A stretch of DNA of 64,000 nt from Wohlfahrtiimonas chitiniclastica DSM 18708 (GTDB lineage Bacteria; Pseudomonadota; Gammaproteobacteria; Cardiobacteriales; Wohlfahrtiimonadaceae): contig NZ_AQXD01000001.1 of the NCBI RefSeq assembly GCF_000375345.1, positions 388,600-452,599 on the forward strand, given 5' to 3'. Numbering within the stretch: position 1 is the first letter of the stretch; each line of letters opens with the position of its first letter. Shown here piece after piece: positions 10,741 to 26,571 of the stretch. Position numbers and translations under genes: made by a program. Below the pieces are notes generated by a model that saw nothing but the letters and a program-made list of their open reading frames with translations, had not been told where the DNA came from and searched no databases.

Positions 10741-10761
10741 AAAGGGCAGAGATTGCCCTTT
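10741..10761 (-). terminator. Rho-independent terminator after the 87-residue gene
   Basis: Perfect 8-bp stem AAAGGGCA/TGCCCTTT with a five-base loop, followed on the minus strand by TGCTTTT. It lies 15 bases after the stop of the small gene and ahead of dnaE, isolating the two transcripts. Confidence 0.75.
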
Positions 10762-10775
10762 GTGAGGGGTTGATT

Positions 10776-11039
10776 TTATGCTGCATGCAGCGTGCGAGAT
10801 AGGTGAGACATCATGGCATAACGCAGTGCGGCATAACGTGTGGCATGATGAATGCGCTGTTTTTTCAAGCGAAAGGTGCGCATTGCTTCTGTGGCATGAT
10901 AGTGACAAGCACGCATGAGATCGCTCACGCTGCTATTTTGAAATTGCACACTCAATTCAATGGCGGTGCGCACAATGTTATCTTTCTCAGTTTGAGGCAG
11001 TGAGTTAAAAAGTTGATAAAAACGTTCTTGCTTAATCAT
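10776..11039 (-). CDS. 87-residue basic protein under S24-repressor-type operators
   Basis: Unrecognised protein, 87 residues, predicted mostly helical. The C-terminal half is rich in Arg, His, Met and Ala (MRTFRLKKQRIHHATRY region), without a TM segment or signal peptide. The ATG has GAGGTG seven bases upstream. Its promoter is very good (TTGACT at 11101-11106, 16-base spacer, TATAAT at 11079-11084, minus strand) and is filled with GTTAT/ATAAC inverted repeats also found at the promoter of the adjacent S24 repressor gene. The gene is therefore inferred to be held off by that repressor and released by damage or another inducing signal. Function unknown; basic composition would fit nucleic-acid binding or an inhibitor, but this is conjecture. 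Confidence 0.75.
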   Translation of the reverse strand: MIKQERFYQLFNSLPQTEKDNIVRTAIELSVQFQNSSVSDLMRACHYHATEAMRTFRLKKQRIHHATRYAALRYAMMSHLSRTLHAA

Positions 11040-11060
11040 CGAATCACCTCGAGCTTATGG

Positions 11061-11106
11061 GTTATAAAATATAACTTAATTATAACTTTGGTTATGAGGA
11101 AGTCAA
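11061..11106 (-). promoter_or_regulatory. Promoter with double operator upstream of the 87-residue gene
   Basis: Minus-strand -35 TTGACT (11101-11106) and -10 TATAAT (11079-11084), spacer 16. Superimposed are GTTAT-N5-ATAAC (11061-11075) and ATAAC-N4-GTTAT (11082-11095). The same pentamers occur at 11849-11881 before the S24 repressor gene. Occupation of these sites would cover the -10 and the spacer, so repression is the expected effect. Confidence 0.7.
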
Positions 11107-11130
11107 TAAAATTGCAACAAAGCACATAAT

Positions 11131-11160
11131 AAAAACCCTCTGATCAATGAGATGAGAGGG
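11131..11160 (-). terminator. Terminator after the S24 repressor gene
   Basis: CCCTCT/AGAGGG stem (11136-11141 with 11155-11160) followed on the minus strand by a run TTTTTATT. It lies about 30 bases after the repressor stop codon. Confidence 0.7.
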
Positions 11161-11188
11161 CAATGAATAGGATGGAGAGTCCTGAATG

Positions 11189-11830
11189 TTATAACAATGT
11201 CGCGTACCAAAACACGCGGCCAATGACGGTGATCTGCTCTAACGGCACATCAAAGGCGGGATATTCCTCGCGGTTGTAGGATTCAACCGTAATGAGGCTG
11301 CCGGTTTTGTGCTTGAGTTTTTTCATTTGTAATAAGCCGTCATTGTTAATGGCGTAAACATCGCCATCAATGATTTTTTGATGGGTTAAATCAATGCCCA
11401 CCGTCGAGCCATTTTTAAACACAGGCTCCATGCTATCACCTTTGACCGTGACGCAAATGGCATCTTTTGGCGAGACATTACCTTCTCTGAGCATGCTGCG
11501 AGAAAAGCGAATAGTGCGCCCTTCATAATCATCAAGTTCAGTGGCACCATGTCCTGCGGACAATTGCACATCTTTATAAAACGGAATGAGCACATCGTCA
11601 TCATCTTCTGTCGGGGCTTTGCTGCTAAACTGTTCTTCCCCAAACAATAACCAATGTTCTGGCACATTAAAATAGTTGGCAATTTGTGGTAAATAGCGGC
11701 TGCGCTTTGTTCTGCCTTGACAAATTTTTGAGATGGCAGCTTGAGAAATTCCCACATCATGGGCGAGAATTTCTTGAGAAATTTTACGTTCATCAATCAA
11801 TAAATTGATGCGATCGGCAATGTTTTGCAT
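11189..11830 (-). CDS. Phage-type repressor, XRE HTH plus S24 (LexA-like) peptidase domain
   Basis: A 213-residue repressor of the lambda cI/LexA type. An XRE helix-turn-helix spans residues 1-60 (LAHDVGISQAAISKICQG as recognition region). A linker then leads to an S24 domain with the likely self-cleavage Ala92-Gly93 (LSAGHG), catalytic Ser133 (GDSMEP) and Lys170 (LQMKKL). All residues needed for RecA-stimulated autocleavage appear present. The ATG at 11830 is preferred over the longer frame because AAGGAG lies just upstream and the domain begins there. The own promoter holds GTTAT/ATAAC repeats, so autoregulation is likely. No other phage genes are nearby, so this is either a domesticated remnant or a stand-alone switch. 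Confidence 0.9.
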   Translation of the reverse strand: MQNIADRINLLIDERKISQEILAHDVGISQAAISKICQGRTKRSRYLPQIANYFNVPEHWLLFGEEQFSSKAPTEDDDDVLIPFYKDVQLSAGHGATELDDYEGRTIRFSRSMLREGNVSPKDAICVTVKGDSMEPVFKNGSTVGIDLTHQKIIDGDVYAINNDGLLQMKKLKHKTGSLITVESYNREEYPAFDVPLEQITVIGRVFWYATLL

Positions 11831-11848
11831 ATAGACTCTCCTTGTGAA

Positions 11849-11881
11849 GTTATCAATATAATTTAAAGTTATAAAAATAAC
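11849..11881 (-). promoter_or_regulatory. Autoregulatory promoter/operator of the S24 repressor
   Basis: Minus-strand promoter TTGTTA, 17-base spacer, TATATT. Within it lies GTTAT-N4-ATAAC (11868-11881), and a further GTTAT half-site at 11849-11853. The half-sites match those at the 87-residue gene promoter. Confidence 0.6.
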
Positions 11882-11934
11882 AAGGCAAAAGGCGCATGGC
11901 AACGGGATTTTGCCCATAATGTATAATTTTTTCG

Positions 11935-13997: not shown

Positions 13998-14088
13998 GGA
14001 GAAGTGGCCGAGAGGCTGAAGGCGCGCCCCTGCTAAGGGCGTATACGTTAATAGCGTATCGAGGGTTCGAATCCCTCCTTCTCCGCCA
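13998..14088 (+). tRNA. tRNA-Ser (anticodon GCT)
   Basis: Class II tRNA of 91 nt with acceptor GGAGAAG/CTTCTCC, discriminator G and encoded CCA. The anticodon loop CTGCTAA gives GCT, which reads AGC/AGU serine codons. A long variable arm (GCGTATACGTTAATAGCG region) and the T-loop GGTTCGAATCC are present. Confidence 0.97.
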
Positions 14089-15948: not shown

Positions 15949-18900
15949 ATGAATAAAGTATATAAAATTGTTTGGAATAAAAAAATTAATCAATGGGTTG
16001 TGGCCAGTGAATTGGCAAAAGGGATGCAAAATGCATCGACATCTGTGGCGCGTGTCGATGACAACCCATTCACTTTTTTTAAGAAGGGTTTTATATGCAT
16101 GGCGTTGTTGAGCGTCCTTTCAGGTGTTAACGCGCAGTCGATCACAGTCAATACAGCCGCTGAATTTAAAACAGCTGTTGAAGGGGGCGCTTATGATCAC
16201 ATTACTTTAGGCAATAACATTACGCTTGGTAGCTATATTGCAGTCAACTTTTCTCAAAAAAACAATATCGTCATTGATGGTAATCATCAATATGAATTGA
16301 AAGTCACCAGTGGCGGCAGTAATGGTTTAAGCATTAATAAGGGTGGTGGTACACTGATTTTACAAAACATGTCCATTGATACTGCGAACTACTACAGTAT
16401 GGTGAGGGTAGAAAGCACAGATCCCGACATCAATGTTGTGTATGACAATATTAAAAATTTTTCTGCCTCTCAACATACATTCATGCGTGGCAGTGGTGGT
16501 AATTCAAATGCCATTGCAACGATGGGAAATATGGGAGTGGTTGCCCCAGTGACACGTCAAGAAATTGGCGAGATCAATAAAATAATTTTTACGGGTCAAT
16601 ATCATGTGGTTCATTCCAATCCAATATTTGTATCATTTCAAAATAGTAGCGCGGTGATTAATACCGCCACGATGGATTTTAAAAAGGGTGCGGATGTTAA
16701 AATTGATCGCACAGGCACAACAGCTAACATCACGAATACAGACAATCGTGCTTTTATGTATACTTTTGAGGATGGTGCTAAGTTTGAATTGATTGCGGCG
16801 CAAAATATTTTATTGGGCACCAATACAAACCGCGGTTTTAGCATCGGTACCTATGATGATAAGGGTTTTGGCGCTGGGGCAAGCATCATTTTAAATCAAA
16901 CAAATACAGGTGCTGCCTATGCAAATGGCATTGATAATGCCACCACCAATACGACAGGCATTAACCACAATGCAACAGGCACAGATCATGTCGTCTTTAA
17001 CTTAGGTGATGAAACAGATTTAAGGATGACGGGCACAGGCATTAGTGCAAGTAAGACAACCGGTTCTGGCGGTATTTACGCCCGAAATGCTGGGAAAATT
17101 GATGCGGATATCGGCATGCACATTGAACACAATAATGGCGAAAATGGTGAGGTTGTACTCGCCAATCAAGGCACCATCACCAGTCAAACAGCAGGCATTG
17201 AATTATTATCCACCGCCAATAAAACCATGAAGCTTGATGGCACATCGGGCAGTTTAACCGCATTAAGTGGCGCAGGCATTAAAGTCGGTCATGCGCAGGA
17301 AAATGGCGATCTCAATCTAGCTTTAGTGGGCGGCGAAATTAATGTATCAGAAGGTGCCACCGGCATAGAATTCAATGGCAACACGGCCAATGTACATACA
17401 ATCACGGGCACAACCATCAATGCAAATGGCACAACGAGCACAGCAATTGAGCATAACAATGCGAATGCTCACATTACGTTTAAAGATACACACATCAATA
17501 TTGAAGATGGCATCGGTTTTAGTGACCTCAACAATAAGACCTTTGCAAAAGGTGATGCGGGCGGAACTAATCAGCTGACTGTGAAAGGCAAAGGCACAGC
17601 ACTGCGTTTAGCTCAGGATCTTTCACAATTAGCGGGTGCACATTTGAACATTAATGTGACGGATCATACAGGTGTTGTGGGCACAACGGGCGCGGGTGTT
17701 GGCGTAGAAATCACGGGGGGCACCGTTGCAGATGTCATTAAGGTTGAGGATGGCGTTAACATTAATGCCACTGGGGCGACTGCTCTTAAAATCTTGGGCA
17801 CGGTTGAAAGAGAGCTCGTCAATCAAGGCGTGATCACGGGATATATACGTTTTGACAATGGTGATGTGAACAACACCATCACCAATACAGGGGCGATTGA
17901 TCATCTCATCACTCATGGCGGGGATGATACCTTAACGATTGAAAGTGGCGCATCACTATTGGGCATCGCGAATTTAGGTGAGGGTCAAAATAAAGTTTAT
18001 ATCAATAATCCTAGCCAGATCCATGGCGTGATGACGGGCAGCGGTGATGATCTCTTTGAATTAAGCAACATTGATTCAAATCATCATGCTGTGATTATTA
18101 ATCAATTAGATGCCGGGGCAGGTACAAATACACTGAATGTGAAAGATTCCATCTTTAAAACCCAAGCCGATACAAAATTTGAAAATTTTGCAAATATCCA
18201 TTTAGACAAAACGGCGCTCACTTTAGCCGCATCAAACAATATTGCAACGGGCACTGTTCATATTGATCAGTTAAGCGCACTCACTTTAGGCGATCAATAT
18301 ACGGGCGATTTTTCAGCCTCTGTGGTTGGGGATGGCACGGTGACAATTGATAAAGGTGCGACAGTCACGCTCACAGGTATCAACACTGGGCTCACAGGCA
18401 ATTTAACTGTGGCAGCGGGTGGCACTTTAAATACCAATCATCTCAATCAATTCGGTTCTGGCACGACAGAAGTTGCCGGTACGCTGAATCACACAGCGAA
18501 TGCGCTAAAAACACATTTAACGGGGGCAGGGCAACTCAATTTAACGGGTGATCAGTCTGCATTTAATTTTGATGATAATGTGGGTTCAGATTTCACAGGC
18601 AATGTGCGTTTACAGAATAATACGTTTAATTTAAGTGGAACAAATACCGATACTTTAGCCAATAGTACGTTATCTTTAAGCTCTGGCAACACCACGACAG
18701 TTGAAGAGCAAAATCAGGCAGTTAAAAATTTAGAATTAGATGGCGCAACGCTGGTGTTTAAGGATGCAGGCAGCATCGTCACTGATCATTTGTCAAACAC
18801 TGCAAAGAATAGTGTGATTCAAGTGGATGTGACAGATACAGAATCTGTGAACGTCATTGATCAAAACTCAGGTGTGGGTAAGCAGTTGATTACTGCCAAC

Positions 18901-21900
18901 ACCAGTGCGATCAATCTTGATCATTTATCATTACAAGATTTTGCGGGACAAGTGCTTGGTGCGGGTACGGAACTTGAAATTAAGCAAAATGGTCATGCAG
19001 TTGCTGAGGGCACTTATCACTACACATTAAAAGAGCATCATGGTTTAGCTTTGAATTATGGCTTAAGCAAAATCGATATCCATGAGGATAAAATCTTAGA
19101 ATTAAACTCAACGACTTCAACCAGTCGAGTGATGAATGCGCAGTTAACTGGGCTTGGCGGCATTAATTTAACGAGTACTGCCGCAGGATTGACGATTGAT
19201 AATGCACTCAATGATTATCAAGGTGCCACGAATGTCACCGCAGGCATGGTGACGCTGGGCAGTGATCATGCTTTGGGTCAAACCGCTCATTTAAATTTAG
19301 CAGCTGGCACAACTGTTGATTTAAGTGGTCACAAACAAACCATTGGTGGCTTAACGAATGCGGGCAGTTTAGACATTGCAGGCGGGAGTTTAACGCTCAC
19401 AGGCAACGGAGCATCAAGCGCTAAGGATGGTTTGCGTGGTGCAGGTCAGTTAAATATTGCTGGGGGCGATTTATCTGTTTCAGCTGAGAATGCCAATTTA
19501 AGTGCCAATGTCTCGATTGCATCCGGTTCGGCATTAACGCTCATTAAAAATGCGACAGTGGGCAGCGGTCACATTGCCATCGCGGGTGCTTTAAAGCTCC
19601 AGACGATGGATACAGCTTTAAACAATACCATGAGCGACGCGGGCTCAATCAATGTGTCTGACCATTCTGATGTGCGTTTGACTGCGGACAATACAGGGTT
19701 TGCAGGAACATTTGCTATTGATGGCACGAGTCACTTAAACGTTACTAAACTGAGCCAATTGGGTTCAGGAAGTGTGGCAGCTGCTGAATCAGGTGCTGTG
19801 AACCTCAATAAGATCACTGGAGAACTCACGAATATAATCAGTGGTGCAGGGAATTTAAATTTATCTGGTACAAATTTGTCATTGAATACAAGCAATACCA
19901 AGCTGAAAAATTTAACAGGTACAATACATCTAACAACTGGATCTAATCTAACATTGGTAGAAAATGGTCAATTAAATGATGCCGCTAAAGTGAATATTAC
20001 TGCAGTTGGTGACAGCATCACTGTGAATTCAAGTGGTGATTTTAACTTTAATAATCACCTTACTGGCTCTGGCTTATTAGATGTTAAAACGGCTGGCAAT
20101 AGTTTTAACTTTGGCAAAGATGTCGGCAGTGACTTTGCAGGGACTGTGAATTTATCGAACAGCACATTTAGTTTAAGCAGTAATAATACAGCAGCACTAA
20201 AAAATGCAACATTGGTGGTTGGTAAAGGCAATACAACCACAGTTGATACGGATAATCAGACCATTGGGAACTTAACATTGGATGGTGGCCAAGCAGTATT
20301 TAAAGGCAAAGGCTCCATTGCCACAGATACTTTGGCAAGTAATAGCACAAGTATAATTCAGGTGGATTTAGATTCCATTGCGCCAACAGATGGCACTGCT
20401 GCGAACTTGTTTGATCAAAATCGTGGCCAGAATCATCAGTTAATTACGGCTAACAATAATGGTGGCCTGAAACTCTCTGATTTAACTTTGCAAGAGCTCA
20501 ATGGCAGTGCAGTAGGCGAAGGCACCATCAGAAATATTGATCAAAATGATCAAAAAGTTGCAGAAGGCACCTACAATTATGCTCTCAATAATGCAGGTGG
20601 TTTAGGTGTTAGTTATGGTTTAAGTGCCTTGAATATTGTGGATGGGCAAACATTGACGTTAGATGCAACAGGTGCCACCAATAAAAATATGACAGCAACC
20701 TTGACTGGCACAGGGAACTTAACCTTAATCAGTGATGATAAGGGGCTAACTTTAACCAATGAAAAGAATGCTTATACAGGTGCCACAAATGTAACAGCTG
20801 GCTTAGTGACGGCGGGTAGTGACAATGCTTTTGGGCAAACTTCCCAGTTAAATTTAGCAGCCGGTACAACCATTGATTTAAATGGTAAAACTCAAGCCGT
20901 TGGTAGCCTAACGAATGAGGGTAAAGTTGATTTTGCTGGTGGTACATTAACCATCATGAATGCGGGTGGTGCTGCATCAACATCATCAGGTGAATTGTCT
21001 GGCATAGGTAATTTAATCATTTCAGCGGGTGATTTAAGCATCACATCGGTAAACAATGATTTAGACGCCAGTATAGATATTCATTCAGGTGCGTCAATGT
21101 CATTATCAGATACGGGTACTTTAGGTTCTAGCCAAATTGCTGTAGATGGTGCACTGAATTTAAATGCTGACGCTACTTTTGGAAATACCTTAGCAGGATC
21201 AGGTGTAGTTAATACAAATGCAGATATTGCATTAACTGGTGATAACTCAGGCTTCACAGGTGCGCAAAATATAGGGAATCAAGCTTCTTTAACCGTTGGC
21301 AGTCAATCTGCATTAGGATTAGGGCAAGTGAATTTTGGTTCAGAAACATCCACGCTGAACTTAAATAGAGTGACTTCAGCGGTTCAGAATGTGTTACATG
21401 GTTCTGGTATGGTGAATATTTCTGATCAATCTTTCGTGAGCTTTAGTTCTGATAACAAAGACTTTACAGGGACATTTGCAGTCGATGGTATAAGCAGTTT
21501 AACAACCACAGATTTTAGCCAACTGGGCAAAGGTTCAGTCAGCATTGTGCAAGGTGGTACCGTTAATTTAGATAAGATGACTGGAGAACTCACGAATATA
21601 ATCAGTGGAACTGGGAGTTTGAATTTATCCGGTTCTAATTTGTCATTGAATACAGGCAACACTAATCTTAAGGATTTAACAGGGACTGTCAATCTCACAA
21701 CTGGCTCTACTCTAACATTAGCGGAAAATGGTCAATTAAATGATTCGGCTAAAGTTAATATTGCTGCAGTTGGTGACAGTGTCATAGTCAATTCAAGCGG
21801 TGATTTTAGCTTTAATAATTATCTCACTGGCTCTGGTTTATTGGATGTTAAAACAACAGGAAATATCTTTAACTTTGGCAAAGATGTGGGCAGTGACTTT

Positions 21901-24900
21901 GCAGGGATTGTGAATTTAGCAAACAGCACCTTTCACTTAACTGGTAATAATACAGCAGCACTAAAAAATGCAACATTAGTAACTGGTACGGGTAACACAA
22001 CTACAATCGATACAGCTAACCAAACCATTGGAAATTTGACATTAGAGGGCGGTCAAACCGTATTTAAAGGCACGGGCTCCATTACCACAAATACTTTGGC
22101 AAACAATGGCTCAAGTATCATCCAAGTGGATTTGGATGCGATTTCGCCAACAGATGGCACTGCTGCGAACTTGTTTGATCAAAACAGTGGTCAGAATCAT
22201 CAATTAATCACAGCTACAAATAATGATGGCCTGAAACTCTCTGATTTAACTTTGCAAGGGCTCAATGGTAGCACTGTGGGCACTGGCACCATTAGAAATA
22301 TTGATCAAAATGACCAAAAAGTTGCAGAAGGTACTTACAATTATGCCCTTAATAATACAGGTGGTTTGGGCGTTAGTTATGGTTTGAGCGCTTTGAATAT
22401 TGTGGATGGTCAAACATTGACGCTCGATTCAACAAGTGCTGCCAATAAAAACATGACAGCAACCTTGACTGGCACAGGGAACTTGGCATTAATCAGTGAT
22501 GATAAGGGGCTAACTTTAACCAATGAAAAGAATGCTTATACAGGTGCCACAAATGTAACAGCTGGCTTAGTGACGGTGGGTAGTGACAATGCCTTTGCGC
22601 AAACATCACAGTTAAATTTAGCAGCCGGTACAACCGTTGATTTAAACGGTAACAAACAAACCGTTGGTAGCCTAGCAAATGATGGTAAAGTTAATTTTGC
22701 AGATGGCACATTAACCATCACGAATGCAGGTGGTGTTTCAACATCATCAGGTGAATTGTCTGGCATAGGTAATTTAATCATTTCAGCGGGTGATTTAAGT
22801 ATCACGACAGCGAATAAGGATTTAGATGCCAGCATAGGCATTCATTCCGGTGCGTCAATGTCATTATCAGATGCAGGCACTTTAGGTACTAGCCAAGTGG
22901 CTGTGGATGGTGCACTGAATTTAAATGCTGACGCTACTTTTGGAAATACCTTAGCAGGATCAGGTGTAGTTAATACAAATGCAGATATTGCATTAACAGC
23001 CGATAACTCAGGCTTTATGGGTGCGCATAATATAGGTAATCAAGCTTCTTTAACTGTTAGCAATCAATCAGCTTTAGGATTAGGGCAAATTAATTTTGGT
23101 TCAGAAACATCAACGCTGAACTTAAATAACGTTACTTCAGCCGTTCAGAATGTCTTACATGGCTCAGGAATTGTGAATATTACAGATAATGCCACTGTTA
23201 ATTTTAGTAGCGATAATAAAGACTTTGCGGGAATATTTGCAGTCGATGCTACAAGTAGCTTAACAACTACGGAATTCAGCCAACTAGGCAAAGGTTCAGT
23301 CAGCATTGTGCAAGGTGGTACCGTTAATTTAGATAAGATGACTGGAGAACTCACGAATATAATCAGTGGAGATGGAAATTTAAATTTATCTGGCTCTAAT
23401 TTGTCATTAAATGCAGGTAATACTCATCTTAAGGATTTGACAGGTACCCTCAACATTGCAATGGGTTCTAAACTAACATTGATAGAAAATGGTCAATTAA
23501 ATGATGCCGCAAAATTCAACATTGCCGCGGTTGGTGACAGTGTCACAGTGAATTCAAGCAGTGATTTTAGCTTTAACAATAATCTTACGGGTTCAGGTCT
23601 ATTAGATGTCCAAACAGCCGGCAATCGCTTTAACTTTGGCAAAGATGTGGGCAGTGATTTTGCTGGGACTGTGAATCTGGAGAATACGCAATTTCATCTA
23701 TCGGGTGATAATACTCAAGCATTACAAAATGCCAATATATCTCTGGGTGCTGGCAATGTTACAACGGTGGGTGCAGGTACTCAAACCATCGGCGGCTTAA
23801 CATTGAATGGCGGTCATTTGTCATTCAATGGTGACAAAGAAACGATTGCTACAGGCACTTTAAGTTCGACGGGTGTTAACACGACAGTCATGATCAATAC
23901 TGAATATATCCCACGTGTTGATGTGAATGAGTCACCGAACTTATTTGATCAATTAACAGGTTTAGTCACCAATATTATTACAGCGAAGGATTCAAGTGGC
24001 TTGAATGTGAACGATTTAACCCTTAAGGATCAACATGGCAAAGAAATCTTGGACAATGTGCATCATGACATTGTGCTAAACGGCGAGAAAATTGCAGATT
24101 CGACATACAACTATCACTTGGTGGAAAATAAAGGTCTAGGCGTGACGTATGGCTTGGTGGCGCTTGATATTCTCGATGGTAAAACACTGACGCTTGATTC
24201 TACGACCATTAATCGTGGCAACAATCAAATGACGGCTAAAATCACGGGGCAAGGTAATTTAAACCTAACGAGTGATGATCAAGGCATGATTGTAGACAAT
24301 AGTCACAATGCTTATACAGGTGTAACGAATGTAACAGCAGGCTTAGTGACGGCTGGCAGTGACAATGCCTTTGGGCAAACTTCCCAGTTAAATTTAGCGA
24401 CGGCTACAACCGTTGATTTAAATGGTCAACAACAAACCATTGGCCGTTTGACGAATGCGGGAACATTGAATCTTGCCGGTGGATCATTGACCATGACGGA
24501 AAAAGGATCCACCTCTTCAGGCGCATTAATGGGCGCAGGGGATTTGATCATCTCTGGTGGTGATTTAAACATCACAACAGCCAACATGGATTTAATGGCC
24601 AATGTTGCGATTCATTCAGGCGCTGCAATTCAGTTGTCTGAAACGGGGTCGTTAGGCAATGGCGCCATTGATGTCGGTGGCACATTAGACATTAACAATG
24701 GACACGTAAATTTTAAAAATGGATTGTCAGGTTCAGGCAAGATCAATATTAATGACAATGTCGCTTTAACCGCGGATGCCAATACATTTTCTGGGACTTT
24801 GAATGTCAATGATCAAACATTGTCAGTCACCTCTGAAAAACAGCTCGGCACTGCGAAGATTGTCAATCATGGCACGGTTGATCTGAATCTATTGGCAGAC

Positions 24901-26571
24901 GGTCGATGGGTGAATCAGATGACGGGCACCGGTGATTTCATTAAATCAGGCAATGGCACGTTAAGGATTGCGAATCAGTTGTTACATACGGGCAATACTG
25001 AGATTAAGGCCGGAACTGTGTTCTTAGAAAAAGGTGCCGTATTAGGTGGCACCAATCAGAAGTCACGTGCAAGCATGGCAGGCACTTTAAACATTGCTCA
25101 AGGCAGTACATTGGCAGGGACCGGTACAGTGAATCAAACTGTCAATAACTATGGCACCATCGATGTGAATTTACGAGATGTCAGACAGAGCCCTGATCGA
25201 GATTATGCACAAGGCAATGCCACATTAACAGTGAATCATGATGTGAATAACCACAATAAGATTTATATCGGCAATGCCAATACGACGGCGGGCAATCGCT
25301 TGATCATTAAGGGTAACTACACAGCGGGTGACAATGCTGTGCTGTATATGAATACAGACCTTGGCAATCAAACGACGAGTTTAGCGGATCAGTTGATTGT
25401 CTCTGGCAATATTTCGGGCAAAACAAAATTACACATCACGGATATTGGCAATGTTGCAGGCGGCATGACATCGCCTTTGGGCATCAAAATCATTGATGCA
25501 GGCTCATCGGATGACAATGCTTTTGAATTACAAAATACCGTGGTCAAAGGCATCAACGAGTATGTTTTATCGAGAAATGCAGAGGATCAAGACTGGTATT
25601 TAACCTCGTATCGAGATTTATATCGCCCGGATGTGGGCAGCACCATCGCAAATAGCATGGGGACCATTCGATCTCAATTGCCGGGTTATGGTTCACACAT
25701 TTCAGGCGCACTGGCCGCCGGTTCTGGTGGCTTGCGTGCTTTAGATCGAAACATGACGGCAGATGGCCAATATCTCGGTTCGGTTTGGTTCAATGAAACG
25801 GGCACCCATGATAAAGGCAACATTGCAGGTGATCAGATCCATTACACTTATAAAGGGTTTGCTTCTGTATTAGGGGCAGACACTGGCTTTAGAACAGGGG
25901 ATGGCTTGGTGATTGTCGGCGGAATGATCTCAACAAGTTCGATGGATTCTAAAGGCTGGAATCGCATCACAGAATCACGCAGCACAGGTTCTATCTCAGG
26001 GCAAAGCATCGGCTTATATGGCAGTTGGTTTAAGAATGCGGACGATGCGTTAAGTCCATTCATTGATTACACGATTTCATATGGCAAGTATGATAATACA
26101 GTGACAACCCTCAATAATGCTTCAAGCTCATATGATTCACGATTGTGGACGGTGAGTGTGCAGGGCGGTTATCCGATGGCCATTGGTGAAAATTTGGTGG
26201 TGGAACCGCAAGCACAAATCAGCTATATCGATTATAAGGTGGACAATTATCGTGATTTTAATGGCACTGACATCCGTGAACAGCAAAAAGGTCATGTGAT
26301 TTCAAGAGTGGGGGCATATGTTTACCCCAAAACAGGTGATGTCAAATCTTATGCAGCGTTTAACCTTTGGTATGACGACATTGCCTCTAAAGTGAGCTAC
26401 GATGATCGAAGTTTATCTTCTGGTAAACCTGGCTTATTCTACGAAGCAAAGCTTGGCGTACAAGCTAAGATGAATGAGAATTTTACGATCAATTCTGAGA
26501 TCAATTATCGTCAAGGCAAACATAAGCATAAAAATTACAACTTTAACATTGGTTTTAAATACCAATTCTAA
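15949..26571 (+). CDS. Giant type Va autotransporter adhesin (3540 residues)
   Basis: Secreted surface protein of the AIDA-I/pertactin-like kind. Residues 1-25 form an extended signal peptide region (MNKVYKIVWNKKINQWVVAS), then a hydrophobic core and probable cleavage after Ala62 (GVNA). The passenger (about 63-3210) is rich in N, G, T, S and L with beta-helix repeats. It contains three full and one partial copies of a unit of roughly 520-590 residues. I saw no cysteine after the signal peptide, usual for autotransporters. The C-terminal 270 residues form the outer-membrane beta-barrel, ending in NIGFKYQF with the terminal Phe that Bam recognises. The 10.6-kb frame is intact. A weak AAGG lies before the ATG and a strong terminator follows. 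Likely role: adhesion, aggregation or biofilm (family inference); ligand unknown. Confidence 0.93.
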   Translation: MNKVYKIVWNKKINQWVVASELAKGMQNASTSVARVDDNPFTFFKKGFICMALLSVLSGVNAQSITVNTAAEFKTAVEGGAYDHITLGNNITLGSYIAVNFSQKNNIVIDGNHQYELKVTSGGSNGLSINKGGGTLILQNMSIDTANYYSMVRVESTDPDINVVYDNIKNFSASQHTFMRGSGGNSNAIATMGNMGVVAPVTRQEIGEINKIIFTGQYHVVHSNPIFVSFQNSSAVINTATMDFKKGADVKIDRTGTTANITNTDNRAFMYTFEDGAKFELIAAQNILLGTNTNRGFSIGTYDDKGFGAGASIILNQTNTGAAYANGIDNATTNTTGINHNATGTDHVVFNLGDETDLRMTGTGISASKTTGSGGIYARNAGKIDADIGMHIEHNNGENGEVVLANQGTITSQTAGIELLSTANKTMKLDGTSGSLTALSGAGIKVGHAQENGDLNLALVGGEINVSEGATGIEFNGNTANVHTITGTTINANGTTSTAIEHNNANAHITFKDTHINIEDGIGFSDLNNKTFAKGDAGGTNQLTVKGKGTALRLAQDLSQLAGAHLNINVTDHTGVVGTTGAGVGVEITGGTVADVIKVEDGVNINATGATALKILGTVERELVNQGVITGYIRFDNGDVNNTITNTGAIDHLITHGGDDTLTIESGASLLGIANLGEGQNKVYINNPSQIHGVMTGSGDDLFELSNIDSNHHAVIINQLDAGAGTNTLNVKDSIFKTQADTKFENFANIHLDKTALTLAASNNIATGTVHIDQLSALTLGDQYTGDFSASVVGDGTVTIDKGATVTLTGINTGLTGNLTVAAGGTLNTNHLNQFGSGTTEVAGTLNHTANALKTHLTGAGQLNLTGDQSAFNFDDNVGSDFTGNVRLQNNTFNLSGTNTDTLANSTLSLSSGNTTTVEEQNQAVKNLELDGATLVFKDAGSIVTDHLSNTAKNSVIQVDVTDTESVNVIDQNSGVGKQLITANTSAINLDHLSLQDFAGQVLGAGTELEIKQNGHAVAEGTYHYTLKEHHGLALNYGLSKIDIHEDKILELNSTTSTSRVMNAQLTGLGGINLTSTAAGLTIDNALNDYQGATNVTAGMVTLGSDHALGQTAHLNLAAGTTVDLSGHKQTIGGLTNAGSLDIAGGSLTLTGNGASSAKDGLRGAGQLNIAGGDLSVSAENANLSANVSIASGSALTLIKNATVGSGHIAIAGALKLQTMDTALNNTMSDAGSINVSDHSDVRLTADNTGFAGTFAIDGTSHLNVTKLSQLGSGSVAAAESGAVNLNKITGELTNIISGAGNLNLSGTNLSLNTSNTKLKNLTGTIHLTTGSNLTLVENGQLNDAAKVNITAVGDSITVNSSGDFNFNNHLTGSGLLDVKTAGNSFNFGKDVGSDFAGTVNLSNSTFSLSSNNTAALKNATLVVGKGNTTTVDTDNQTIGNLTLDGGQAVFKGKGSIATDTLASNSTSIIQVDLDSIAPTDGTAANLFDQNRGQNHQLITANNNGGLKLSDLTLQELNGSAVGEGTIRNIDQNDQKVAEGTYNYALNNAGGLGVSYGLSALNIVDGQTLTLDATGATNKNMTATLTGTGNLTLISDDKGLTLTNEKNAYTGATNVTAGLVTAGSDNAFGQTSQLNLAAGTTIDLNGKTQAVGSLTNEGKVDFAGGTLTIMNAGGAASTSSGELSGIGNLIISAGDLSITSVNNDLDASIDIHSGASMSLSDTGTLGSSQIAVDGALNLNADATFGNTLAGSGVVNTNADIALTGDNSGFTGAQNIGNQASLTVGSQSALGLGQVNFGSETSTLNLNRVTSAVQNVLHGSGMVNISDQSFVSFSSDNKDFTGTFAVDGISSLTTTDFSQLGKGSVSIVQGGTVNLDKMTGELTNIISGTGSLNLSGSNLSLNTGNTNLKDLTGTVNLTTGSTLTLAENGQLNDSAKVNIAAVGDSVIVNSSGDFSFNNYLTGSGLLDVKTTGNIFNFGKDVGSDFAGIVNLANSTFHLTGNNTAALKNATLVTGTGNTTTIDTANQTIGNLTLEGGQTVFKGTGSITTNTLANNGSSIIQVDLDAISPTDGTAANLFDQNSGQNHQLITATNNDGLKLSDLTLQGLNGSTVGTGTIRNIDQNDQKVAEGTYNYALNNTGGLGVSYGLSALNIVDGQTLTLDSTSAANKNMTATLTGTGNLALISDDKGLTLTNEKNAYTGATNVTAGLVTVGSDNAFAQTSQLNLAAGTTVDLNGNKQTVGSLANDGKVNFADGTLTITNAGGVSTSSGELSGIGNLIISAGDLSITTANKDLDASIGIHSGASMSLSDAGTLGTSQVAVDGALNLNADATFGNTLAGSGVVNTNADIALTADNSGFMGAHNIGNQASLTVSNQSALGLGQINFGSETSTLNLNNVTSAVQNVLHGSGIVNITDNATVNFSSDNKDFAGIFAVDATSSLTTTEFSQLGKGSVSIVQGGTVNLDKMTGELTNIISGDGNLNLSGSNLSLNAGNTHLKDLTGTLNIAMGSKLTLIENGQLNDAAKFNIAAVGDSVTVNSSSDFSFNNNLTGSGLLDVQTAGNRFNFGKDVGSDFAGTVNLENTQFHLSGDNTQALQNANISLGAGNVTTVGAGTQTIGGLTLNGGHLSFNGDKETIATGTLSSTGVNTTVMINTEYIPRVDVNESPNLFDQLTGLVTNIITAKDSSGLNVNDLTLKDQHGKEILDNVHHDIVLNGEKIADSTYNYHLVENKGLGVTYGLVALDILDGKTLTLDSTTINRGNNQMTAKITGQGNLNLTSDDQGMIVDNSHNAYTGVTNVTAGLVTAGSDNAFGQTSQLNLATATTVDLNGQQQTIGRLTNAGTLNLAGGSLTMTEKGSTSSGALMGAGDLIISGGDLNITTANMDLMANVAIHSGAAIQLSETGSLGNGAIDVGGTLDINNGHVNFKNGLSGSGKININDNVALTADANTFSGTLNVNDQTLSVTSEKQLGTAKIVNHGTVDLNLLADGRWVNQMTGTGDFIKSGNGTLRIANQLLHTGNTEIKAGTVFLEKGAVLGGTNQKSRASMAGTLNIAQGSTLAGTGTVNQTVNNYGTIDVNLRDVRQSPDRDYAQGNATLTVNHDVNNHNKIYIGNANTTAGNRLIIKGNYTAGDNAVLYMNTDLGNQTTSLADQLIVSGNISGKTKLHITDIGNVAGGMTSPLGIKIIDAGSSDDNAFELQNTVVKGINEYVLSRNAEDQDWYLTSYRDLYRPDVGSTIANSMGTIRSQLPGYGSHISGALAAGSGGLRALDRNMTADGQYLGSVWFNETGTHDKGNIAGDQIHYTYKGFASVLGADTGFRTGDGLVIVGGMISTSSMDSKGWNRITESRSTGSISGQSIGLYGSWFKNADDALSPFIDYTISYGKYDNTVTTLNNASSSYDSRLWTVSVQGGYPMAIGENLVVEPQAQISYIDYKVDNYRDFNGTDIREQQKGHVISRVGAYVYPKTGDVKSYAAFNLWYDDIASKVSYDDRSLSSGKPGLFYEAKLGVQAKMNENFTINSEINYRQGKHKHKNYNFNIGFKYQF
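19144..20700 (+). repeat. Autotransporter internal repeat, unit 1 (519 codons)
   Basis: Begins with the LTGLGGINLTS segment and runs to the next equivalent position. It includes the GATNVTAG motif, the FNFGKDVGSDFAG motif and the LFDQNRGQ segment. More diverged and about 70 codons shorter than units 2 and 3. Confidence 0.7.
20701..22464 (+). repeat. Autotransporter internal repeat, unit 2 (588 codons)
   Basis: Starts at LTGTGNLTLISDDKG. Very close to unit 3 even at nucleotide level; stretches of more than 70 identical bases are shared (for example 21170-21240 with 22919-22989, and about 21526-21608 with 23288-23370). Confidence 0.8.
22465..24240 (+). repeat. Autotransporter internal repeat, unit 3 (592 codons)
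   Basis: Starts at LTGTGNLALISDDKG, nearly a copy of unit 2 for most of its length. The last third (from about 23690) diverges toward different strand sequences before unit 4. Confidence 0.8.
24241..24900 (+). repeat. Autotransporter internal repeat, partial unit 4
   Basis: Starts at ITGQGNLNLTSDDQG and includes VTNVTAGLVTAGSDNAFGQ, matching units 2-3. It fades into the passenger C-terminal region after about 220 codons, so the end is approximate. Confidence 0.6.

What the first reader, a model, noticed from the sequence alone, without database searches (positions are those of the whole stretch)
10776..11881. Orphan S24 repressor and an unknown 87-residue gene share one operator type
The promoter of the 87-residue gene (TTGACT-N16-TATAAT) and that of the S24 repressor both hold GTTAT/ATAAC inverted repeats with 4-5 base spacers. 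Cleavage and catalytic residues (Ala92-Gly93, Ser133, Lys170) look intact. No other phage genes are present. It looks like a two-gene DNA-damage-responsive switch that releases a small basic protein of unknown function: sequence seen directly, switch inferred. It might be a domesticated prophage immunity remnant or a small defence/toxin module.
Basis: partly seen in the sequence, partly recalled or inferred. Interest (0 to 1): 0.6.

Follow-up and report, generated by a model that had tools for sequence, protein, structure and literature searches.

The report
Captured phage repressor probably controlling recA
In Wohlfahrtiimonas, bacteria in which the usual DNA-damage repressor LexA was not found, a repressor gene captured from a phage sits beside an unknown small gene, and the same unusual DNA-binding site marks that small gene and recA in all six species examined, which suggests the phage repressor has taken over a small SOS-type damage response.

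Summary
The window is from Wohlfahrtiimonas. The S24 gene (11189-11830, -) and the 87-residue gene (10776-11039, -) lie between htpG and dnaE. The only two GTTAT/ATAAC clusters in the 64 kb are at their promoters (simulated expectation 0.075). Both genes occur in all six held Wohlfahrtiimonas genomes and are under purifying selection; the small gene is absent elsewhere in the order. Both operators are far better conserved than their flanks. 'Two-gene switch' is too narrow. No lexA was found in the genus. Scored against the small gene's 17-base operator alone (GTTATAATTAAGTTATA), the recA promoter is the unique next-best match genome-wide in five of six species, tied in the sixth; recA promoters of other genera lack it. 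Best reading: a co-opted phage CI-type repressor acting as a LexA substitute, controlling itself, the 87-residue gene and probably recA, released by RecA-driven self-cleavage (inferred, untested). The small protein is a predicted four-helix protein with no detectable relatives; defence, toxin or decaying-prophage readings find no support. Captured phage repressors running damage responses are known (Francisella FddR, Streptococcus HdiR, Bacteroidetes), so this is a new member of a known kind with an uncharacterised small partner.

The parts
11189..11830 (-). S24-family phage CI-type repressor gene, 213 aa (HTH 7-64, peptidase 84-207; A92-G93 cleavage site, S133/K170 dyad)
   Evidence: Pfam, PHROG phrog_4 E=6.9e-52, 434-repressor HTH in PDB; invariant catalytic residues; dN/dS 0.003-0.07 where dS could be estimated
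10776..11039 (-). 87-residue gene, predicted four-helix protein without detectable relatives outside the genus
   Evidence: Present in six of six Wohlfahrtiimonas, absent in 26 other genomes of the order; dN/dS 0.02-0.15 where dS could be estimated; AlphaFold pLDDT 85; no fold match
11061..11095 (-). Operator of the 87-residue gene: ATAAC-N4-GTTAT-N6-GTTAT(-N5-ATAAC, last arm not conserved); conserved core 11068-11095
   Evidence: 26/28 columns invariant in six species; the 17-mer GTTATAATTAAGTTATA recurs, with 1-2 changes, at recA
11079..11106 (-). Promoter of the 87-residue gene, TTGACT-N16-TATAAT, overlapped by the operator
   Evidence: TTGACA in four other species
11849..11883 (-). Operator in the S24 gene's own promoter (GTTAT-N4-ATAAC, ATAAC-N5-(A/G)TTAT, ATAAC); a perfect palindrome TATAACTATAAGTTATA in W. 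populi
   Evidence: 28/31 columns (11853-11883) invariant in five species
10741..10761 (-). Terminator-like hairpin after the 87-residue gene, before dnaE
11127..11161 (-). Terminator-like inverted repeat after the S24 gene (CCCTCT...AGAGGGTTTTTATTAT), so the two genes are probably separate transcripts
   Evidence: read directly from sequence; not flagged by the scan, which allows loops of at most 8 bases

Best explanation
A prophage CI-type S24 repressor, captured before the six Wohlfahrtiimonas species diverged, serves as a LexA substitute. Undamaged cell: it binds GTTAT/ATAAC half-sites spaced about one helical turn apart and represses its own gene, the 87-residue gene and recA. DNA damage: RecA filaments trigger self-cleavage at A92-G93 by S133/K170, and all three genes are released. 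The 87-residue helical protein is a damage-induced accessory protein, most likely a modulator of the response (comparable in position, not in sequence, to Acinetobacter DdrR). Shown here: genes, conservation, operators, the shared recA site, absence of a detectable lexA. Inferred: binding, cleavage, induction, the protein's role.
For: Pair in all six species, same site where the contig allows. Operators conserved far above flanks and unique in the window. Scored against the small-gene 17-mer alone, the recA promoter is the unique next-best match genome-wide in five of six genomes, tied with three others in W. larvae; GTTAT-N6-GTTATA occurs exactly twice in G000 and in G002, at the small gene and at recA. 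The recA motif has 16/17 invariant columns against 37/110 elsewhere upstream. By my reading the -10 lies in different halves of the 17-mer at the two promoters, so shared promoter architecture does not explain it. recA promoters read from other genera of the order lack it. No lexA: TIGR00498 none over cut-off in 21 genomes, 24 bits at best in G000 against 110.95; PF01726 none in the genus. The other full S24 repressors read from the genus look prophage-borne. A prophage CI of W. sp. G9077 (38% identical) has the same half-sites in a similar arrangement between CI and Cro. S24 identity between G001 and G005 is 1.00 despite dS 1.29.
Against: No binding, cleavage or expression data. recA carries only the direct-repeat part (GTTAT-N6-GTTAT), not the ATAAC-N4/5-GTTAT palindrome expected for a 434-like dimer, and the S24 promoter lacks that direct repeat; only the small gene holds both. 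No other classical SOS gene was found with the site, though only strict patterns could be searched. The six species are related, so conserved sites are not six independent events.
Confidence: 0.58

Rival explanations
1. Two circuits overlap at the small gene: S24 binds only the ATAAC-N4/5-GTTAT palindromes (its own and the small gene's promoter), while an unidentified second regulator binds the GTTAT-N6-GTTAT direct repeat at the small gene and recA. The small gene is then co-regulated with recA, but S24 is not recA's repressor.
For: The recA promoter has only the direct repeat and the S24 promoter only palindromic pairs.
Against: The prophage CI-Cro region with the same half-site also mixes ATAAC-N4-GTTAT, GTTAT-N7-GTTAT and GTTAT-N5-ATAAC, so one CI-type repressor plausibly reads both; no second syntenic LexA-like candidate was found.
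Confidence: 0.2
2. Self-contained two-gene switch: S24 controls only itself and the small gene; the recA resemblance is coincidence.
For: Perfect palindromic sites are rare, and those read elsewhere lie at gene ends, inside genes or in prophage.
Against: recA is the next-best match to the small-gene site out of about 2 Mb in five of six species, and the recA site is itself conserved.
Confidence: 0.13
3. The S24 gene is kept as resident immunity: it binds operators of incoming phages that use the same half-sites, and the small protein is its passenger or partner.
For: A prophage fragment in W. sp. G9077 has CI-Cro operators built from the same half-sites; phage genes lie beyond the tRNA-Ser next to htpG in other strains.
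Against: Immunity genes usually diversify quickly (own knowledge); S24 is as conserved as dnaE/htpG and in the same place across the genus. Does not explain the recA site.
Confidence: 0.07

Closest known systems
FddR of Francisella (PMC13148647)
   Same: Co-opted phage S24 repressor conserved across a genus, autoregulated, paired with a neighbouring gene that may be uncharacterised; Ala-Gly and Ser-Lys intact; proposed to rebuild an SOS-like response.
   Different: FddR sits in divergent pairs and binds GTG-N11-CAC; recA is not induced there. Here the genes are tandem, the half-site is GTTAT, and recA seems recruited.
UmuDAb-DdrR of Acinetobacter (PMC11332147, PMC7273328)
   Same: LexA-less gammaproteobacteria; an S24-family repressor next to a small genus-specific protein whose gene it represses.
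   Different: UmuDAb derives from UmuD, not phage CI, and controls umuDC genes; the two genes are divergent. Homology between the 87-residue protein and DdrR was not tested (no DdrR sequence at hand).
HdiR of Streptococcaceae and LexA-like repressors of Bacteroidetes (PMC8565304)
   Same: Phage-like S24 repressors replacing LexA; HdiR is reported there to regulate cinA-recA in Streptococcus thermophilus.
   Different: Unrelated lineages and operators; no small partner gene described in what I read.
PrtR-PrtN of Pseudomonas
   Same: From my own knowledge: a CI-type repressor represses an adjacent small activator gene, released through RecA.
   Different: The 87-residue protein matched no Pfam family credibly, and no pyocin activator family was named.
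Phage CI repressors (PHROG phrog_4; 434 repressor HTH)
   Same: S24 protein matches phrog_4 over 1-209 and is 36-38% identical to full CI proteins; the ATAAC-N4-GTTAT palindrome is 14 bp, like the 434 operator (the latter from my own knowledge).
   Different: No cro, integrase or replication genes alongside; fixed chromosomal site between htpG and dnaE.

Membership tests
Self-cleaving S24 repressor (LexA/CI/HdiR superfamily) | HTH domain plus S24 peptidase domain | tested here: met
   PF00717 E=8.5e-23, HTH_19 and HTH_3 above cut-off
Self-cleaving S24 repressor (LexA/CI/HdiR superfamily) | Ala-Gly scissile bond and Ser/Lys dyad | tested here: met
   A92-G93, S133, K170 invariant in five species
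Self-cleaving S24 repressor (LexA/CI/HdiR superfamily) | RecA-stimulated self-cleavage | not testable with these tools
   needs purified protein
Canonical LexA | TIGR00498 above cut-off / LexA winged HTH (PF01726) | tested here: not met
   No TIGR00498 match over cut-off in any of 21 genomes; no PF01726 match in the genus; the HTH is Cro/CI-type
Co-opted phage repressor acting as SOS regulator (FddR/HdiR kind) | Closest relatives are phage repressors | tested here: met
   phrog_4 E=6.9e-52; phage CI hits 36-38% over full length; 46-49% over the peptidase part of prophage-like CI genes in same-family genomes. No tree was built
Co-opted phage repressor acting as SOS regulator (FddR/HdiR kind) | Conserved across the genus outside prophages, lexA absent | tested here: met
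Co-opted phage repressor acting as SOS regulator (FddR/HdiR kind) | Operator in its own promoter and in promoters of damage genes | tested here: inconclusive
   Conserved sites in the S24 and small-gene promoters; recA carries only the direct-repeat part of the small-gene operator; binding not tested
Co-opted phage repressor acting as SOS regulator (FddR/HdiR kind) | Damage-inducible expression of targets | not testable with these tools
   needs RT-qPCR or RNA-seq
DdrR (Acinetobacter corepressor) | Sequence homology to DdrR | not tested
   no DdrR sequence was available
PrtN pyocin activator | Match to its Pfam family | tested here: not met
   no such family among the Pfam matches up to E=10
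Known anti-phage defence system | PADLOC match for the small protein | tested here: not met
   0 families

The most novel reading that the evidence does not exclude
An independent capture of a phage repressor as SOS regulator in a LexA-less branch of Gammaproteobacteria (Wohlfahrtiimonas), in which recA itself has been recruited through a GTTATAWTTAWGTTATA box and a genus-specific four-helix protein is a new damage-induced effector or co-regulator.
Probability: 0.5. Interest if true: 0.7.

Novelty: new member of a known kind. Interest (0 to 1): 0.58.

Why it matters
How SOS networks are rebuilt after LexA is lost is an open question; several known replacements control mostly themselves, polymerases or uncharacterised neighbours. 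A case with very few targets, one of them recA, would catch the rebuilding at an early step and is easy to test. I found no described damage regulator for Wohlfahrtiimonas (one genome paper of the genus was read), and the link would give the 87-residue protein a concrete function to test.

Tried and rejected
Perfect TATAAC-N4/5-GTTATA palindromes elsewhere in the genus as extra operators: most of those read lie at or near 3' ends of genes or in a prophage, so not counted. Other ATAAC-N4/5-GTTAT sites in G000: inside coding genes. Other S24 proteins as recA regulator: those with readable context look prophage-borne. Homologues of the small protein in phages, plasmids, Pfam, PHROGs, NCBIfam, PADLOC, PDB and predicted viral folds: nothing significant; the two IMG/VR hits look like host DNA beside a prophage at tRNA-Ser. 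AlphaFold of the S24 protein from three sequences was poor (pLDDT 49) and not used. A third site (248-residue exported protein before pnuC, four species) is absent upstream of the orthologue in G000 and G002 and kept as a lead only.

Full report
What is there. The window belongs to Wohlfahrtiimonas (Cardiobacteriales): the record titles of its nearest relatives are W. sp. G9077, W. populi and W. larvae. On the minus strand, between htpG and dnaE, lie an S24 repressor gene (11189-11830) and an 87-residue gene (10776-11039). Each has its own promoter and terminator-like repeat, so they are probably separate transcripts. The repressor has an HTH and a peptidase domain, matches the phage repressor family phrog_4 (E=6.9e-52), and its HTH is nearest to the 434 repressor among solved structures. 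A92-G93, S133 and K170 are invariant in the five species with a full-length gene; in W. larvae the contig begins inside the gene.

More than chance. The two promoters hold the only two clusters of three or more GTTAT/ATAAC half-sites within 40 bases in the 64-kb window; first-order Markov sequence with the window's dinucleotide frequencies averages 0.075. At the small gene the order is ATAAC-N4-GTTAT-N6-GTTAT-N5-ATAAC, overlapping the -10 and the expected start of transcription. At the S24 promoter it is GTTAT-N4-ATAAC-N5-(A/G)TTAT-N4-ATAAC, the last arm varying between species. In W. populi the S24 site is a perfect palindrome, TATAACTATAAGTTATA.

The pair is a genus trait. Both genes occur in all six held species, with dnaE, and with htpG wherever the contig reaches. 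The small gene is absent from the 26 other genomes of the order. S24 changes no faster than dnaE and htpG (83-84% identity against 80-84%), and between two species with dS 1.29 its identity is 1.00; the small gene is less conserved (60-63%), with dN/dS of 0.02-0.15 where dS could be estimated. This is not a decaying remnant.

The recA link. Six whole genomes were searched with a 17-base pattern covering the small-gene site and allowing two mismatches, and every hit was re-scored against the small-gene sequence GTTATAATTAAGTTATA alone. The recA promoter is the unique next-best match in five genomes (1-2 mismatches) and is tied with three others in W. larvae. Halves only (GTTAT-N6-GTTATA) occur exactly twice in G000 and in G002: small gene and recA. 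In the recA promoter the motif is invariant at 16 of 17 columns, against 37 of 110 in the remaining upstream sequence. By my reading the -10 falls in the first half at the small gene and in the second half at recA, so common promoter architecture does not explain the match. recA promoters read from other genera of the order lack it. No lexA was found in any Wohlfahrtiimonas: no TIGR00498 match above cut-off and no LexA DNA-binding domain, while both searches rang in control genomes.

Origin. Full-length relatives are phage CI repressors (36-38%) and prophage-like CI genes of the same bacterial family (46-49% over the peptidase part). A prophage fragment in W. sp. G9077 has a CI (38% identical) whose CI-Cro region reads TATAACAATAGTTATTG and GTTATAATCATTGTTATTTTCAATAAC: the same half-sites in a similar arrangement of palindrome, direct repeat and palindrome. 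This supports both a phage origin and the idea that a CI-type repressor reads the direct repeat found at recA.

The small protein. Predicted four helices (pLDDT 85); no family, phage, plasmid, PDB or viral-fold relative. Its role is unknown; by position it resembles a damage-induced accessory or co-regulator such as DdrR, but homology was not tested.

Mechanism and doubts. The best reading is a LexA substitute that represses itself, the small gene and probably recA, released by RecA-driven cleavage. Weak points: recA has only the direct repeat while the S24 promoter has only palindromic pairs, so a second regulator on the direct repeat is possible; the genomes are related; no experiment exists; and no full promoter scan was possible.

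Known comparisons. Co-opted phage repressors running damage responses are described in Francisella (FddR, PMC13148647, where recA is not induced), Streptococcaceae (HdiR) and Bacteroidetes (PMC8565304); Acinetobacter uses UmuDAb with the small protein DdrR (PMC11332147, PMC7273328). This is therefore a new member of a known kind. The one W. chitiniclastica genome paper read (PMC9301364) does not mention lexA, SOS or recA.

Noticed in passing
recA promoters of several same-family (genus g4) genomes, loci L114-L116, L123, L127: A direct repeat ACTTAAATGTAAT flanks the recA -10 (variant ACATAAATGTAAT upstream in L128, L130); possibly the operator of a different damage regulator in that genus, which also lacks canonical LexA in most genomes.
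   Followed up: partly
L096, L097, L103, L104 around position 1501: ATAAC-N5-GTTATA-N5-GTTATA conserved upstream of a 248-residue exported protein of unknown family followed by pnuC in four Wohlfahrtiimonas species; absent upstream of the orthologue in G000 and G002.
   Followed up: partly
window 13998-14088: tRNA-Ser next to htpG; in two other strains (IMG/VR L074, L075) phage-like genes (ssb, excisionase-like) start just beyond it, so it is probably a prophage attachment site.
   Followed up: partly
window 15949-26571: A single 3540-residue autotransporter-like ORF with many internal repeats, just downstream of two small predicted membrane proteins.
   Followed up: no
L057, L061, L064, L067: Identical perfect palindromes TATAACTTTAAGTTATA (or its complement) at or near the 3' ends of genes in several species; look like terminators or chance rather than operators.
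   Followed up: partly
order Cardiobacteriales: Only 2 of 32 genomes have a LexA DNA-binding domain match and none of the 21 genomes searched has a TIGR00498 match above cut-off, so LexA loss seems widespread in the order.
   Followed up: partly
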